In this document: positions 32,454 to 39,402 of the stretch, in pieces
How positions within the stretch are numbered: position 1 is the first letter of the stretch
Layout: each line of letters opens with the position of its first letter
DNA from: Phytoactinopolyspora halophila
GTDB lineage: Bacteria > Actinomycetota > Actinomycetes > Jiangellales > Jiangellaceae
Length of the DNA: 64,000 bases
Direction: 5' to 3'
NCBI RefSeq assembly: GCF_003287285.1
Contig: NZ_QMIG01000023.1
Location: 1 to 64,000 of the forward strand
Position numbers and translations under genes: made by a program
The notes under the pieces: generated by a model
The model's database searches: none
Told to the model about the DNA's origin: nothing
What the model saw: only the letters and a program-made list of their open reading frames with translations

Positions 32454-32707
32454 TTCTGGAATTCTTCCGGTCATGTCAAGATATGAGCGGAAAAATTCTC
32501 GGCATCTGAGCATCACGGACATCTACGACGCCCCCGACTATCACGCACGATCGCCTCGGTGGGGCACCCCCGCGCCACACCGGAGGACGTCCGGTGCAGC
32601 GTGCCACCGGGCGCCCTGCTACTACACTGCTGCCGCACGTGCCGGCATCCCGAGGCTCGCTCACCGCCAGCACGAACGGTGTATCCCGACAGTCCTGGAG
32701 TGCCCGC

Positions 32708-33265
32708 ATGACTCGCATCCCACGCCCCACCCCTGACGAGCTCGATGAGCAGCAGAAACGCCTGCATGCGGCCGTCACCGGCGGCGATCGCGCGAACGGT
32801 CCGCAGCTCTTCCGCCTGGCCGACGACGACGGCCGGCTCGAGGGCCCGTTCAACGCGATGCTTCTCAACCCCGCCGTCGGCGATGCCCTGCAGCGCCTCG
32901 GCGCGGCGATCCGCTACGAAGGACGGCTCTCCGACCGCTGCCGGGAGATCGCGATCCTCGCCGTCGCCGCCCACTGGCAATCCGGGTTCGAGCAGCGCGC
33001 CCACGAACCGATCGGCGCCCACGTCGGGCTGGCCGCAACCGAACTGGATTCCCTGCGCAATGGCGATCCCGTCGAGCTCGACGACCCGGACGAGGCCGCG
33101 GTGCTCCGGACCACCCGCCACCTCCTCCAGCATCTCGACCTCGACGACGACGCGTATCGCGCGGCGGCCGAGGCTCTCGGCCACGACAAGCTCTTCGAGC
33201 TCACCACCCTGATCGGCTACTACTCCACGCTGGCCTTGCAGATGCGCGTGTTCGCCGTCCATTGA
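32708..33265 (+). CDS. Carboxymuconolactone decarboxylase-like (AhpD-fold) protein
   Basis: 185-aa all-helical protein. The central part (ALQRLGAAIRYEGRLSDRCREIAILAVAAHW) is the CMD signature region. The redox CxxC pair of AhpD is absent (a single Cys), so it is more likely a decarboxylase/lactone-type or ligand-binding member. ATG at 32708 follows GGAGTG. It starts a same-strand row with an unrecognised 483-aa protein and a formamidase. Confidence 0.8.
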   Translation: MTRIPRPTPDELDEQQKRLHAAVTGGDRANGPQLFRLADDDGRLEGPFNAMLLNPAVGDALQRLGAAIRYEGRLSDRCREIAILAVAAHWQSGFEQRAHEPIGAHVGLAATELDSLRNGDPVELDDPDEAAVLRTTRHLLQHLDLDDDAYRAAAEALGHDKLFELTTLIGYYSTLALQMRVFAVH

Positions 33266-33346: not shown

Positions 33347-34798
33347 ATGCAAGCCCCGTCCGGAGTGGTGTTTCCCCGTAGCGCCGGGGACACCCGAAGC
33401 ACATCCGCGTTCGGCCGTGCCGTCGTGGCCGACGCGCTCCGCGGTGCCGACCCCGTTGGTGCGCGCGCAGCCGAGCACGAGGCCAACTGGCGCGCGAACT
33501 ACCTCGTCCACTTCCGCCGCCTCGTCGAAGCGGGGCTCACCTCCGCGGACGCCGCACGTCAGATCGCCGCGGACGGGCTGGCGTCGCTGCACGAGCGCAT
33601 GCGCGTCGTCACCGGCGACGAGGAGACGAGCCTGGCGGCGGCGCTGGATCACAGTGCCGAGCCGCTGGAAACCGCCGTCGTCTCCGGCGAGGGAACACCG
33701 GAACGCGAGCTCGTCTTGCCCTACCGAGGCCAGCGCCTTCAGGGCGACGACCTGGCACGTCAGCTCGACACCTGGGTTCGCAGTGGCGTGATCGAGCCGT
33801 CGTGTGCGGAGGCCATCCGCACGGTCATGGCCAACCCGGACTGGCTCGATCTGTCCGACCTGCAGATCGTCATCTTCGGGGCAGGTGCGGAAATGGGCCC
33901 GGTGCGTTCCCTGCTGCGCTGGGGTGGCGACGTCACTGCCGTCGACCTCCCCCGGCCCGGGATCTGGAACGGCCTCATCGAGACAGCCCGGCGCTACGCC
34001 GGACGCCTGCACCTTCCGGTGCGTACCGGCGACGGCAAGCTGGAAGACCGGGCAGGGGCGGACCTGCTGCACGAGCTACCAGCGCTGGCCGGTTGGCTGT
34101 CGCGTCTCGACGGCCCGCTCGTGCTCGGCAACTACGCCTACGCTGACGGCGCCACCCACGTGCGCGTCGCGATGGCCGTTGACGCCCTCACCGACCGTCT
34201 CGCGCGGGAGCGGGGCGAGGCGACACTCTCGTTTCTCGCGACGCCCACGGACGTGTTCGCCGTACCGGCGGACGCGGTCGAGCACTCGGTCCACGCCTAC
34301 GAGAAGCGGTCCAAGCTGAGCATGATCCGGCGCCCCCTGAAGATCGTGTCCGGGGGCCGGATGCTGCAACGCAACTACGCTCCCGGCGCCGATCCCGGCA
34401 TCTGCGACAGCCTGGTTCCCCAGCAGGGACCGAACTATGCGCTGGCCAAACGGCTGCAGCGGTGGCGCGCGACGACCGCACACGCGCACGGCGCGACGGT
34501 GAGCCTGAACGTCGCACCACCCACGCGTACCCGATCGGTAACCAAGAATCGAGCGTTGTCCGCGGTTTATGCCGGCGCGCATCGCTTCGGTGTCGAGGTG
34601 TTCGAGCCCGGAACGGCCAACACCCTCATGGCCGCCCTCCTCGTGCACGACCTGCGACGTCCGGCGCAACCGCGGGAGCATCCCTGGCTGGACGAAGCCG
34701 CCCAGGCGGCACACGGCGGGCTGTGGCGCATCGCCTACGCACCCCGCAGTGCGCTCGGCCTGGCGGGAATCGTGGGCCTCACCGGTGCCCGCACCTGA
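33347..34798 (+). CDS. Unrecognised 483-aa protein with a Rossmann-like centre
   Basis: I cannot place this protein in a family. An N-terminal helical part (about 1-150, rich in Ala, Arg and Glu) leads to a glycine-rich stretch VIFGAGAEMGPVRSLLRWG followed by a strand ending in VTAVDLP. That is the pattern of a Rossmann fold binding NAD(P) or S-adenosylmethionine. There is no signal peptide or membrane segment. Codon use and GC match the neighbours, so it is a real gene. ATG at 33347 follows AGAGGGAG. It lies 81 bases after the CMD-like gene and 103 before the formamidase gene. Confidence 0.8.
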   Translation: MQAPSGVVFPRSAGDTRSTSAFGRAVVADALRGADPVGARAAEHEANWRANYLVHFRRLVEAGLTSADAARQIAADGLASLHERMRVVTGDEETSLAAALDHSAEPLETAVVSGEGTPERELVLPYRGQRLQGDDLARQLDTWVRSGVIEPSCAEAIRTVMANPDWLDLSDLQIVIFGAGAEMGPVRSLLRWGGDVTAVDLPRPGIWNGLIETARRYAGRLHLPVRTGDGKLEDRAGADLLHELPALAGWLSRLDGPLVLGNYAYADGATHVRVAMAVDALTDRLARERGEATLSFLATPTDVFAVPADAVEHSVHAYEKRSKLSMIRRPLKIVSGGRMLQRNYAPGADPGICDSLVPQQGPNYALAKRLQRWRATTAHAHGATVSLNVAPPTRTRSVTKNRALSAVYAGAHRFGVEVFEPGTANTLMAALLVHDLRRPAQPREHPWLDEAAQAAHGGLWRIAYAPRSALGLAGIVGLTGART

Positions 34799-34901: not shown

Positions 34902-36017
34902 ATGGCTGTCCACGAGATCCGGATCGACCGGTCGAAGGCACTGGCAGAAGAACCGGCCACCGGTCACAACCGCTGGCATCCCGCCATTCCACCTGCCGTG
35001 CGCTGCGCCCCCGGAGATGAGGTCGTCCTGGAGACGCGCGACGCCTTTGACGGCCAGCTGACGCCCATCGACACTGCCGACGCCGTCGCCGCCGCTGACC
35101 TCACCCGGGTGCACCCGCTGACCGGGCCCGTGCACGTGGATGGCGCCGAACCTGGCGACCTGCTGGAGGTCGAAATCCTCGACGTCGAACCGGAGCAGTG
35201 GGGCTTCACCGTCCAGGTGCCCGGTTTCGGGTTCTTGCGTGACGAGTTCCCCGACCCGTTCAAGGTCGATTGGGAGCTCGCCGACGGGTGGGCGGTCTCC
35301 GAAGACCTCCCCGGCGTGCGCATCCCGGGAGCGCCGTTCATGGGCACCATCGGCCTGGCGCCGGGGCACCAACTGCTCGTGGACACCACGGCTCGCGAGC
35401 AAGAGCTGATCGACCGGGGCGGCATGGCCATGCCGCCGGCCCCAGAAGGGGCCGTACCCAGCGATCCGGAGATCGCGACCACGGCCCTGCGGACGGTGCC
35501 GCCCCGCGAGCAGGGTGGCAACATCGACATCAAGCAGCTCGGCGCCGGCACCCGGCTGTTCTTGCCGGTCGACACCCACGGGGGCCTCTTCTCGGCCGGT
35601 GACGCGCATTTCGCGCAGGGCGATTGTGAAGCGTGCGGGACCGCCATCGAGATGGGCGCCACGCTTCGCGTACGTTTCGACCTCCGCAAGGGGGAGGCGA
35701 GCGCGAAGGGAATTCGCGACCCTCAGTTCGCGCGTGAAGACTACTTCTTGCCCCCGCAGTACGCCGCGCCGCGCCGGTTCTTCGCCACCACCGGAATCTC
35801 GGTGACCCGGGACGGCCGGAACGACGGCGAGAACACCACGATCGCCGCCCGCAACGCCTTGCTGAACATGATCGATCATCTCGGTGAGCGCGGCTGGACC
35901 CGGCAGCAGGCCTACGCGATCTGCAGCGTCGCCGTCGATCTCAAGATCAGCCAGCTGGTCGACGTCCCGAACATGCTCGTCTCCGCGTTCCTGCCGGAGG
36001 ACATCTTCACCGGCTGA
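34902..36017 (+). CDS. Acetamidase/formamidase family protein
   Basis: 371-aa FmdA/AmdA-family amidohydrolase releasing ammonia from formamide or short amides. Recognisable blocks are GPVHVDGAEPGDLLEVEILD, the GGNIDIKQLGAGTRLFLPV segment and GDAHFAQGDCEACGTAIE, with the conserved acidic and His residues. The long upstream open frame is not needed; ATG at 34902 follows GGGGAGG. It ends the CMD-like/unknown/formamidase row and is convergent with the GlxR gene, 19 bases apart. Confidence 0.9.
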   Translation: MAVHEIRIDRSKALAEEPATGHNRWHPAIPPAVRCAPGDEVVLETRDAFDGQLTPIDTADAVAAADLTRVHPLTGPVHVDGAEPGDLLEVEILDVEPEQWGFTVQVPGFGFLRDEFPDPFKVDWELADGWAVSEDLPGVRIPGAPFMGTIGLAPGHQLLVDTTAREQELIDRGGMAMPPAPEGAVPSDPEIATTALRTVPPREQGGNIDIKQLGAGTRLFLPVDTHGGLFSAGDAHFAQGDCEACGTAIEMGATLRVRFDLRKGEASAKGIRDPQFAREDYFLPPQYAAPRRFFATTGISVTRDGRNDGENTTIAARNALLNMIDHLGERGWTRQQAYAICSVAVDLKISQLVDVPNMLVSAFLPEDIFTG

Positions 36018-36036: not shown

Positions 36037-36990
36037 TCACACGTCGTTCGCGCGCCGGCCGGATAGCTGCTCGACTTGCAACAGGAGCGCCGAATGATCG
36101 AGGTCGCCGTGTCCCTGGGCGCGCAGCGAGGCGACGAGTGTCGCCGCGAGCGCACCGACGGGGATGGCCACGCCGGTCTCGCGCGCGGCCGCCGTGACGA
36201 TCCCCAGGTCCTTGTGGTGCAGGTCGACCCGGAACCCCGGGGCGAAATTTCCCTCCAGCATCGCCGCACCCTTGCGCTCCAGGATGGCGTTGCCGGCCAG
36301 GCCGCCCGAAAGCACCTCGACGGCACGCTCCCGGTCGACACCGTGGGCGTCGAGGAACACGAGCGCCTCGGAGACCACTTCGAGGATGCCCGCGACCATC
36401 AGCTGGTTGGCGGCCTTCACCGTCTGTCCGCTGCCGGCGGGCCCGACGTGCACCACGGTGGTGCCCATGGCGTGCAGGATCGGTTTGACCGAGGTGAATG
36501 CGTGCTCGTCGCCGCCCACCATGATCGACAGCACGCCGTCTATCGCTCCCCGCTCACCCCCGCTCACCGGCGCATCGAGCACCCGGTTTCCCCGTTGCGC
36601 ACCGGCCTCGGCCAGGCGGCGGGCGACGTCGGGCCGGATGGTGCTCATGTCGATCACGGTCGCTCCGGGTGACAGGTGCGCGAGTACGCCAGCCGAGTCA
36701 CCATCGTCGCCACCTCCGGCCGCATCGTCACCGCGGGCGTCCTCGCCGGAGGCCTGGCCCAGCAGCACAGCCTCCACATCCGGCGAGTCCGGCAGCATCG
36801 TGATGACCACATCCGCACCGGCCGCTGCTTCCACCGCTGATCCGGCACGTCGCCCACCGGCGTCGACGAGCGGCTCGACCTTCGCCGGGCTGCGGTTGTA
36901 TCCGACGACGTCAAAGCCAGCACGGACGAGGTTGGCGGCCATCGGGCCACCCATGACCCCGAGGCCGATGAAGCCGATCGTGGTGGTCAT
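36037..36990 (-). CDS. 3-hydroxyisobutyrate dehydrogenase-family reductase, probably tartronate semialdehyde reductase
   Basis: 317-aa NAD(P)-dependent beta-hydroxyacid dehydrogenase. The start GFIGLGVMGGPMAANL is the dinucleotide motif; DAPVSGGERGA is the substrate-binding block and GQTVKAANQ holds the catalytic Lys. An acidic Gly-rich insert (about residues 80-98) is unusual. Pairing with a hydroxypyruvate isomerase 15 bases upstream points to 2-hydroxy-3-oxopropionate reductase (GlxR), making glycerate from glyoxylate-derived tartronate semialdehyde. No glyoxylate carboligase gene is in the window. Confidence 0.85.
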   Translation of the reverse strand: MTTTIGFIGLGVMGGPMAANLVRAGFDVVGYNRSPAKVEPLVDAGGRRAGSAVEAAAGADVVITMLPDSPDVEAVLLGQASGEDARGDDAAGGGDDGDSAGVLAHLSPGATVIDMSTIRPDVARRLAEAGAQRGNRVLDAPVSGGERGAIDGVLSIMVGGDEHAFTSVKPILHAMGTTVVHVGPAGSGQTVKAANQLMVAGILEVVSEALVFLDAHGVDRERAVEVLSGGLAGNAILERKGAAMLEGNFAPGFRVDLHHKDLGIVTAAARETGVAIPVGALAATLVASLRAQGHGDLDHSALLLQVEQLSGRRANDV

Positions 36991-37005
36991 CGTGGGTTCC
37001 TCCGG

Positions 37006-37827
37006 TCAGGAATCGGGCATGCTCTGAACACGTTCCCGCGCCCGGGTGAGCATGGCGATCGGATCGGGATCGTCACCGAGATGTTCGAGAGCGATCCATC
37101 CGTCGTAGCCACCCGCACGCAGGTCGCCCACCCATGCTTGCAGGGGCAGCTCACCCGTCCCGGGCGCACCCCGGCCGGGCGCATCGGCCACCTGGACATG
37201 GGCGACGTGGTCCCGGTGATGCTCGATCGCCGCGGAAACGTCGTCGCCGTTGACCGCCAGGTGGTACATGTCGAGCAGGAGGCCGAGGTTGCTCACGCCG
37301 GTCTCCTCGCGCACCCGGCCGGTGACGGCGACGGCATCAGCGGCCGTGCGCAGTGGGTAGTGCTCGGCACCGCTCACCGGTTCGACGAGCACCGTGGCAC
37401 CGATCGAGCTCAGCTCGCCGGCGGCGTAGGCGAGGTTTCGCACCCCCAACGTGTCCTGCTCCGCCGGGGACGCCGCCGGCTGGCGGTTTCCGTACAACGC
37501 GTTAAATACCTGGCATCCGAGTGCCGCACCGATCCGGCAGGCGGTCTCCACGCTGGCCCGCAGCTCGTCCTCGCGGCCCGGCCACGACATCACGCCCCGG
37601 TCTCCACCGGCCATGTCGCCCGCGAACAGGTTCAGCCCGGCCAGCTGCAATCCGGACTCGCCGACATTGTCGACGAAGCGCTCGACCTCGGACTCGTCGG
37701 GCGCCGCCGTGGTGAACGGCCACCAGAATTCCACGCCGTCGAAACCCGCGTCCCGCGCCAGGGTCAGGCGTTCGGGCAGCGGATATCCCTTCAACATGAT
37801 CGAACAGTTCACGGCGTAGCGCGGCAT
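37006..37827 (-). CDS. hyi: Hydroxypyruvate isomerase family TIM-barrel protein
   Basis: 273-aa sugar-phosphate-isomerase-like barrel. It begins MPRYAVNCSIMLKG, like Hyi proteins, and has LVEPVSGAEHYPL, DMYHLAVNGDD and a terminal GYDGWIALEH block carrying the metal-binding Glu/Asp/His set. It should interconvert hydroxypyruvate and tartronate semialdehyde. It precedes the GlxR-like gene by 15 bases in one operon, with the aldehyde dehydrogenase gene upstream. Confidence 0.88.
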   Translation of the reverse strand: MPRYAVNCSIMLKGYPLPERLTLARDAGFDGVEFWWPFTTAAPDESEVERFVDNVGESGLQLAGLNLFAGDMAGGDRGVMSWPGREDELRASVETACRIGAALGCQVFNALYGNRQPAASPAEQDTLGVRNLAYAAGELSSIGATVLVEPVSGAEHYPLRTAADAVAVTGRVREETGVSNLGLLLDMYHLAVNGDDVSAAIEHHRDHVAHVQVADAPGRGAPGTGELPLQAWVGDLRAGGYDGWIALEHLGDDPDPIAMLTRARERVQSMPDS

Positions 37828-37890
37828 CGTCGCCCTTCCCTGGTCCCGATCGTTCCAGCCTCGATCACGCTCGTACAGGCAGCTCCTGCG

Positions 37891-39402
37891 CTATGGCAGG
37901 ACCAGCTGGCCGTCGACGCGCCGGGGGATGCCGGGCCCGGCGTCACGCAGCTCTTCCGGCAGTGCCGGCTCCGGGGCGTTCTGCCAGGCCACCGGACGCA
38001 GGAAACGCCGGACAGCGGTGGGGCCGACGGACGTGTGCAGCGTGTTGGTCGACGGCCACGGCCCGCCGTGCTGCTGTGCCCAGGTGACAGCGACGCCGGT
38101 GGGAAAGCCGTTGTAGATGAACCGCCCCGCCTTGTCCCGCAGGACGTGCACGGCGCGTTCCGGCAGCTCGGTCTCGTCCCGCCCGGTGTGCACCGAGGCA
38201 GTGAGCGACGCCGGCAGCGACGCGAGCGCCGATGTGAGCTCGTCGACGTCGCGGTAACGGGCGACGACCGTCACCGGCCCGAAGCACTCCTCCGTCACCT
38301 CCGGCTCCAGGCCAGCCGCGTCGGTGAATACGAGCTGCGGAATGGTCGCGAACCCCTGCGCCGGAAGCTCCGCGTCAAGTGCGACGACCTCGGTTCCTTC
38401 GACCGATCCCAGCCGCTCGATCCCGGCGCGGTACGAGGTGGCGATCCCCTCGTTGAGCATCCACTGCGGCCCGAGCTCGCGCAACGCCACGCGCATCGAC
38501 TCGACCACGGCGTCACCATCGGCACCTGCCGGAACGAAGACAAGGCCGGGCTTGGTGCAGAACTGCCCGGATCCCAGCGTTGCCGAGCCGACGATGCCGC
38601 GCCCGATCTCGTCCGGGCGCTCGCTCGCGGCGTCGTGCGTGACGACGAGCGGGTTGAGACTGCTCATCTCGCCGTAGAACGGGATGGGCTCGGGACGGCG
38701 GTTGATGATGTCCATCAGAGCGCGCCCACCACTGAGCGAGCCGGTGAATCCCACGGCCCGGATCACCGGATGCGCCACCAGCGCCGCGCCGGCATCCAGA
38801 CCGTGAACGAGCGAGACGGTGCCCTCGGGCGCGCCCGACTCCCGGGCGGCGCGCTGCAAGATCTCGCCACATATCACCGACGTCTCCGGATGCGAGCCAT
38901 GCGCCTTGACGACGACGGGGCACCCCGCCGCCAGGGCCGACGCGGTGTCACCGCCGGGCACGGAGAACGCGAGGGGGAAGTTGCTGGCACCGAAGACGGC
39001 AACCGGGCCAGTGGGCACGAGCATGCGGCGGATATCCGGGCGCGGACCCATGGGCGTGTCACCGGCATGATCGATCATCGCCTCGACGTAGCTGCCCTCG
39101 TCCAGCACCTCCGCGAACAGCCGCAACTGGTAGCACGTCCGGGTCAGCTCGTTCCCCAGGCGCCCCTCCCCCAGAGCGGTCTCGCGGTCTCCCGTCGCGA
39201 CGATTCGTTCCCGTTCCGCTTCGAGAGCGTCGGCCATTGCCCGCAGCATCGCCGCACGGCCCGCACGCCCCATCGCCTCCAACGCGGGAAACGCCGTCTG
39301 GGCCTGCTGGCAGATCCAGTCCACCTGCTCGGCCGCCGTCTCCTCGGCGACGGCACCGCCGGCGGATCCGGTCCGGGGGTCGATGCTGACCACGGTAGTC
39401 AC
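37891..39402 (-). CDS. Aldehyde dehydrogenase, 2,5-dioxovalerate (alpha-ketoglutaric semialdehyde) type
   Basis: 503-aa NAD(P)-dependent dehydrogenase. The catalytic Cys is in SGQFCTKPGLV and the general-base Glu in PFYGEMSSLNP, both in the form typical of ketoglutarate semialdehyde dehydrogenases, as is the FGASNFPLAFS cofactor block. Such enzymes finish sugar-acid (galactarate, glucarate, L-arabinose) or hydroxyproline breakdown. The GTG start follows GGAGGA. It leads the operon with hyi and the GlxR-like gene; the arabinan cluster close by makes pentose oxidation a possible source of substrate. Confidence 0.88.
   Translation of the reverse strand: MTTVVSIDPRTGSAGGAVAEETAAEQVDWICQQAQTAFPALEAMGRAGRAAMLRAMADALEAERERIVATGDRETALGEGRLGNELTRTCYQLRLFAEVLDEGSYVEAMIDHAGDTPMGPRPDIRRMLVPTGPVAVFGASNFPLAFSVPGGDTASALAAGCPVVVKAHGSHPETSVICGEILQRAARESGAPEGTVSLVHGLDAGAALVAHPVIRAVGFTGSLSGGRALMDIINRRPEPIPFYGEMSSLNPLVVTHDAASERPDEIGRGIVGSATLGSGQFCTKPGLVFVPAGADGDAVVESMRVALRELGPQWMLNEGIATSYRAGIERLGSVEGTEVVALDAELPAQGFATIPQLVFTDAAGLEPEVTEECFGPVTVVARYRDVDELTSALASLPASLTASVHTGRDETELPERAVHVLRDKAGRFIYNGFPTGVAVTWAQQHGGPWPSTNTLHTSVGPTAVRRFLRPVAWQNAPEPALPEELRDAGPGIPRRVDGQLVLP

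What the first reader, a model, noticed from the sequence alone, without database searches (positions are those of the whole stretch)
33347..34798. Orphan Rossmann-like protein between a CMD-like protein and a formamidase
A 483-aa protein that I cannot assign sits in a same-strand row with a CMD-fold protein and an acetamidase/formamidase. It has one glycine-rich nucleotide-binding-like motif and no membrane segment. It could be a new enzyme in amide or one-carbon-nitrogen metabolism.
Basis: inference. Interest (0 to 1): 0.6.

Follow-up and report, generated by a model that had tools for sequence, protein, structure and literature searches.

The report
Unnamed SDR-fold protein family, Actinomycetota
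The gene encodes a strongly conserved protein family of soil and marine actinobacteria (also found in Acinetobacter) that no domain library searched here describes; its predicted shape and active-site residues resemble the large short-chain dehydrogenase/reductase enzyme group, and it has no lasting link to the formamidase gene beside it.

Summary
The ORF is real: 33347-34798 (+), 483 aa, with a Shine-Dalgarno-like GAGGGAG. It lies in a same-strand row with a CMD-domain gene and an acetamidase/formamidase. It matches no Pfam, NCBIfam, PHROG or PDB sequence. At least 265 genome stretches encode relatives; all 80 kept are Actinomycetota at 57-77% identity, and a 39%-identical copy lies in Acinetobacter baumannii. 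An AlphaFold2 model (pLDDT 86.7) resembles short-chain dehydrogenase/reductases (SDRs): about 220-300 aligned residues, Z 18-22, with ketoreductase domains of fungal fatty acid synthase ranked highest. Residues expected of an SDR active site are invariant or nearly so in 112 relatives: Y364xxxK368 at the start of a helix, T299 at the end of the preceding core strand, D200, and VAP-x-T-x-T. Departures are a Glu in place of the second Gly of TGxxxGxG, a ~50-residue insert before the catalytic Tyr, and a ~165-residue N-terminal region without a structural match. One distant relative has Gln for the catalytic Lys. The amide-metabolism idea fails: the CMD gene was found near 1 of 80 relatives, the formamidase near none, and no neighbour is conserved across families. 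Best reading: an uncharacterised, stand-alone NAD(P)(H)-dependent ketoreductase-like SDR; substrate unknown. Interest moderate.

The parts
33347..34798 (+). Gene of the uncharacterised 483-aa SDR-fold protein (P0001)
   Evidence: Open frame, ribosome-binding-like site, 112 full-length relatives with invariant residues
33347..33841 (+). N-terminal region, residues 1-165, mostly helical; conserved W48, Y52, G114, P125, G128, W143
   Evidence: Folded alone with pLDDT 91.7; no PDB match above Z 3.2
33863..33958 (+). First strand, glycine-rich turn GAGAEMGP (residues 178-185) and D200 at the end of the second strand: putative dinucleotide site
   Evidence: G178, A179, P185, D200 in 112/112 and E182 in 111/112; in register with SDR profiles
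34223..34252 (+). Strand and FLATPTD turn, residues 293-302; T299 at the position of the catalytic Ser
   Evidence: T299 in 111/112, Ser in the other; P300 and T301 in 112/112; Ser also in the distant relative P0003
34256..34420 (+). Insert of about 50 residues (304-358) between T299 and the catalytic Tyr, variable and partly low confidence
   Evidence: Alignment; pLDDT 55-57 around residues 321-340
34424..34450 (+). QGPNYALAK, residues 360-368: putative catalytic Y364xxxK368 at the start of a helix
   Evidence: Y364 and K368 in 112/112; helix 362-380
34499..34549 (+). Strand and VAPPTRTRSVTKN, residues 385-401, resembling the SDR VAPGxxxT turn
   Evidence: A390, P391, T393, T395, S397, N401 in 112/112
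32708..33265 (+). CMD-domain gene upstream (longest ORF starts at 32594): neighbour only, not part of a conserved unit
   Evidence: PF02627 E 2e-5; found in 1 of 80 loci
34902..36017 (+). Acetamidase/formamidase gene downstream: neighbour only, not part of a conserved unit
   Evidence: PF03069 E 6e-119; found in 0 of 80 loci

Best explanation
The protein is a stand-alone member of an uncharacterised family with a short-chain dehydrogenase/reductase (SDR) fold. Most likely it binds NAD(H) or NADP(H) in the Rossmann core (residues about 165-460) and reduces a ketone, or oxidises an alcohol, by the SDR mechanism: Tyr364 as acid/base, Lys368 lowering its pKa and holding the ribose, Thr299 polarising the carbonyl. 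The insert before Tyr364 and the N-terminal region would shape a substrate pocket of its own. Asp200 at the end of the second strand suggests NAD(H) rather than NADP(H). An acyl-thioester substrate is only a guess, from the resemblance to fatty acid synthase ketoreductase. Shown: conservation, fold prediction, motif positions. Inferred: cofactor, chemistry, substrate.
For: AlphaFold2 model pLDDT 86.7, pTM 0.87; 946 of 1000 re-aligned PDB chains have Z of at least 8, and the listed ones are SDRs (Z 18-19, ~220 aligned) or fungal FAS ketoreductase regions (Z 19-22, ~300 aligned). T299, Y364, K368, D200 and P391 are invariant or nearly so in 112 relatives down to 39% identity. Sequence support over residues 166-245: one relative matches a 3-oxoacyl-ACP reductase model at E 2.8e-4, and the family profile picks up ordinary SDRs of mycobacterial genomes at E 1e-4 to 1e-3, whose ORFs carry YALGK. 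Single copy in nearly all genomes that have it.
Against: The second glycine of TGxxxGxG is an invariant Glu and the first helix is short, so dinucleotide binding may be altered or lost. One distant relative (P0003) has Gln in place of the catalytic Lys. Sequence similarity to SDRs is confined to the first strand-helix-strand; profile comparison gave a probability of only 18%. The residue correspondence for T299/Y364/K368 was read from secondary-structure order, not from a printed structural alignment. No conserved neighbour or literature points to a substrate.
Confidence: 0.62

Rival explanations
1. An SDR-fold protein that no longer binds a dinucleotide or does redox chemistry; the conserved pocket serves another reaction (for example hydrolysis, isomerisation or lyase chemistry) or ligand sensing.
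For: Invariant Glu182 where SDRs have glycine near the pyrophosphate, short first helix; Lys to Gln in one distant relative; long insert beside the active site.
Against: D200, T299, Y364, K368 and VAP-x-T-x-T are kept in 112 relatives including Acinetobacter, which loss of redox function would not require.
Confidence: 0.22
2. A detached relative of the ketoreductase region of type I fatty acid synthase, acting on acyl-ACP or acyl-CoA thioesters in lipid metabolism (a narrower form of the best explanation).
For: Fungal FAS ketoreductase regions rank first, Z 19-22 with ~300 residues aligned against ~220 for other SDRs; carriers of the gene have WS/DGAT lipid-storage acyltransferases more often, 58 of 67 against 192 of 327.
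Against: No sequence similarity to actinobacterial FAS-I ketoreductase; the N-terminal region alone matches no FAS part; the window's own genome and the other carriers of its family lack WS/DGAT; the co-occurrence count ignores shared ancestry.
Confidence: 0.12
3. One reading: an enzyme of amide or one-carbon nitrogen metabolism working with the CMD protein and the formamidase.
For: Same strand, gaps of 81 and 103 bases, no terminator-like site between them on that strand.
Against: CMD near 1 of 80 relatives, formamidase near none, no neighbour kept across families.
Confidence: 0.03

Closest known systems
Classical SDRs such as FabG-type 3-oxoacyl-ACP reductases
   Same: Rossmann fold; Tyr-x-x-x-Lys at a helix start, Thr/Ser at the end of the preceding core strand, Asp after the second strand, VAP turn
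   Different: About twice the length (483 aa); ~165-residue N-terminal region; ~50-residue insert before the Tyr; Glu in the glycine motif; no curated SDR model recognises it
Ketoreductase domain of type I fatty acid synthase (fungal alpha subunit, mycobacterial FAS-I)
   Same: Best-ranked structural neighbour of the model; FAS-I has GSPN...YGEAK where this family has ATPT...YALAK
   Different: Stand-alone protein; no detectable sequence similarity; N-terminal region not matched
Hypothetical protein of Acinetobacter baumannii (WP_163063045.1)
   Same: Same family, 39-40% identity over the full length, same invariant residues
   Different: Different neighbours: formylglycine-generating enzyme and D-serine ammonia-lyase; also uncharacterised

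Membership tests
SDR superfamily (broad) | Rossmann-type alpha/beta fold with SDR topology | tested here: met
   Predicted model; SDR chains at Z 18-19 over ~220 residues. Prediction, not a solved structure
SDR superfamily (broad) | Tyr-x-x-x-Lys in the active site | tested here: met
   Y364 and K368 in 112/112; Lys is Gln in one distant relative
SDR superfamily (broad) | Ser/Thr upstream of the catalytic Tyr at the end of a core strand | tested here: met
   T299 in 111/112, Ser in one; Ser in P0003
SDR superfamily (broad) | Binds NAD(H) or NADP(H) | not testable with these tools
   Needs purified protein
Classical SDR subfamily | TGxxxGxG motif | tested here: not met
   Here GAGAEMG: Glu at the second Gly in 111/112, Leu/Phe for Thr; not filed as a classical SDR
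Classical SDR subfamily | Match to Pfam or NCBIfam SDR models above cut-off | tested here: not met
   No Pfam SDR match at E up to 10 in 31 members; NCBIfam best E 2.8e-4, 20 bits against a cut-off of 414
Type I FAS ketoreductase | Sequence similarity to FAS-I ketoreductase domains | tested here: not met
   Profile comparison probability 0.0-0.3% against four actinobacterial FAS-I
Type I FAS ketoreductase | Fold of the whole region, including the part before the ketoreductase core | tested here: inconclusive
   Whole model Z 19-22, but the N-terminal region alone gives no match
Amide-metabolism operon with formamidase and CMD protein | Conserved linkage of the three genes | tested here: not met
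   1/80 and 0/80

The most novel reading that the evidence does not exclude
A widespread, unnamed SDR-fold enzyme family whose invariant Glu in the nucleotide-binding turn, active-site insert and extra N-terminal domain support a reaction or cofactor use not known among SDRs, in a core metabolic step of many actinobacteria and of Acinetobacter.
Probability: 0.15. Interest if true: 0.65.

Novelty: new variant of a known kind. Interest (0 to 1): 0.38.

Why it matters
A single-copy gene kept at 57-77% identity across many actinobacterial families, including genomes of only about 2 Mb, and present in a clinically important genus, is likely to do something that matters to the cell, yet no library searched here names it. 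Recognising it as SDR-like gives testable residues (Y364, K368, T299, E182) and a cofactor assay as an entry point.

Tried and rejected
Domain libraries with the protein and with 31 relatives: nothing useful apart from weak SDR matches over the first strand-helix-strand. PDB by sequence profile: only chance-level matches. Methyltransferase reading of the glycine-rich motif (weak match to 3bzb, E 0.12): set aside because the fold and the Tyr/Lys positions fit SDRs. Descent from FAS-I ketoreductase by sequence: not seen. Folding residues 1-168 alone and searching PDB: no match; a fold that the search ranked lower cannot be excluded. Viral structures: nothing convincing. Conserved neighbourhood over 81 loci by a home-made gene caller: recurrent neighbours only within single families, such as a leucyl-aminopeptidase-like gene in Geodermatophilaceae (that name is from memory). 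Literature searches found no paper on the family. Wide searches outside Actinomycetota were not possible beyond plasmid and phage records, so the full taxonomic range is unknown.

Full report
Observation. The ORF at 33347-34798 (+) encodes 483 residues. It starts with ATG after GAGGGAG and has the codon-position composition of a real gene. The upstream neighbour has a CMD domain only just above Pfam's cut-off (24.9 against 23 bits); the downstream one is a clear acetamidase/formamidase by Pfam, although it scores far under NCBIfam's formamidase cut-off (290 against 500 bits). All three are on the + strand.

Family. The protein has no match in Pfam, NCBIfam, PHROGs or PDB sequences. A scan of one genome per species found 265 stretches that encode relatives; the best 80 are all Actinomycetota (Micromonosporaceae, Geodermatophilaceae, Nocardioidaceae, Intrasporangiaceae, Jiangellaceae, Patulibacter, Nitriliruptoraceae and others) at 57-77% identity. 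In samples, 25 of 396 genomes of the phylum have a match (24 strong, one marginal at E 3.5e-4) and 70 of 394 of the class (67 strong); the gene is almost always single copy. In the window's own family it is present in the window's genome and five genomes of one other genus, and absent from 16 further genomes. Plasmid-collection records, several of them chromosome-sized, gave a full-length relative at 39% in Acinetobacter baumannii, annotated as hypothetical protein.

Structure. An AlphaFold2 model from 21 relatives has pLDDT 86.7 and pTM 0.87. Foldseek's matches are SDRs and SDR-type ketoreductases, with modest E-values (best 1.7e-4). Re-alignment of the top 1000 chains gives Z 19-22 with about 300 residues for the fungal fatty acid synthase ketoreductase region and Z 18-19 with about 220 residues for ordinary SDRs. 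The secondary-structure order fits an SDR: strand 173-177 followed by GAGAEMG; strand 195-199 ending in D200; strand 293-298 ending in T299; helix 362-380 starting with Y364 and K368; strand 385-389 followed by VAPPTRT. This correspondence is my reading of the order of elements; the tools print no residue-level structural alignment.

Conservation. In 112 full-length relatives (a few of them the same loci fetched twice), G178, A179, P185, D200, Y265, P300, T301, Q360, G361, N363, Y364, A367, K368, A390, P391, T393, T395, S397, N401 and G457-G458-x-W460 are invariant; T299 is Ser once and E182 is Gln once. A more distant relative in another genome (P0003) keeps Tyr, has Ser for T299, but has Gln for K368. 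So Lys is kept in the family proper, but is not absolute in its outer reach.

Sequence support for SDR. One relative matches a 3-oxoacyl-ACP reductase model at E 2.8e-4 over residues 166-245. The family profile finds ordinary SDRs in three mycobacterial genomes at E 1e-4 to 1e-3 over positions 166-226; their ORFs carry YALGK. Sequence therefore supports a Rossmann start of SDR type and the fold carries the rest.

Departures. (i) In TGxxxGxG the second Gly is Glu, and the following helix is short (186-191). (ii) About 50 residues are inserted between T299 and Y364. (iii) Residues 1-165 form a mostly helical region that folds confidently alone (pLDDT 91.7, pTM 0.61) and has no PDB match above Z 3.2. 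The TGxxxGxG test fails, so the protein is not filed as a classical SDR; the broad SDR-fold assignment stands.

Neighbourhood. In 80 loci with up to 10 kb on each side, the CMD gene occurs once (Phytoactinopolyspora limicola, ending about 3.3 kb upstream) and the formamidase never. Three of four Phytoactinopolyspora loci keep the wider order uppS-recO-dacB near the gene, one also a leuA-like gene, so the region is syntenic within the family while the genes directly beside it change. Clustering of six genes on each side of 81 loci shows no neighbour shared across families apart from common ABC-transporter and regulator types. The three-gene row is therefore local and probably recent.

Function. 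Best reading: a stand-alone NAD(P)(H)-dependent ketoreductase/alcohol dehydrogenase of SDR type, substrate unknown (0.62). FAS ketoreductase ranks first by structure, but the lead over other SDRs is 2-3 Z units, sequence gives no link, and the N-terminal region alone does not match FAS, so common origin is not shown. Carriers have WS/DGAT acyltransferases more often (58 of 67 against 192 of 327, Fisher p 7e-6), but this ignores shared ancestry, and the window's own genome and the other carriers of its family have none; it is a weak lead.

Verdict. This is a new, unnamed variant of a very large known enzyme group: useful to know, moderately interesting.

Noticed in passing
window 36037-39402 (-): A row on the - strand of a tartronate-semialdehyde-reductase-like protein, a hydroxypyruvate-isomerase-like protein and an aldehyde dehydrogenase of no close subfamily suggests a small sugar-acid or glyoxylate pathway.
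   Followed up: no
window 34902-36017 (+): The acetamidase/formamidase scores 290 bits against NCBIfam's formamidase cut-off of 500, so its substrate may not be formamide.
   Followed up: no
L129:2299-3708 (+): Divergent relative in a large genome of the family f4: GPDYALAQ, with Gln in place of the catalytic Lys, and Ser for T299.
   Followed up: partly
phage records CAKLQF020000014.1 and CAKLQH020000010.1: Two records named Acinetobacter phage MD-2021a hold a 99.4% copy of the Acinetobacter gene that otherwise looks chromosomal; carried host DNA or mislabelled chromosome pieces are possible.
   Followed up: no
L098-L112 (genomes of the same phylum or class): Two levels of relatives, at about 44-51% and 54-77% identity to the window protein, and single copies even in genomes of about 2 Mb, suggest an old gene kept under genome reduction.
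   Followed up: partly
G000 contigs C31 and C19: Open frames of 7078 and 3998 codons with several weak SDR-type matches look like modular polyketide synthases.
   Followed up: no
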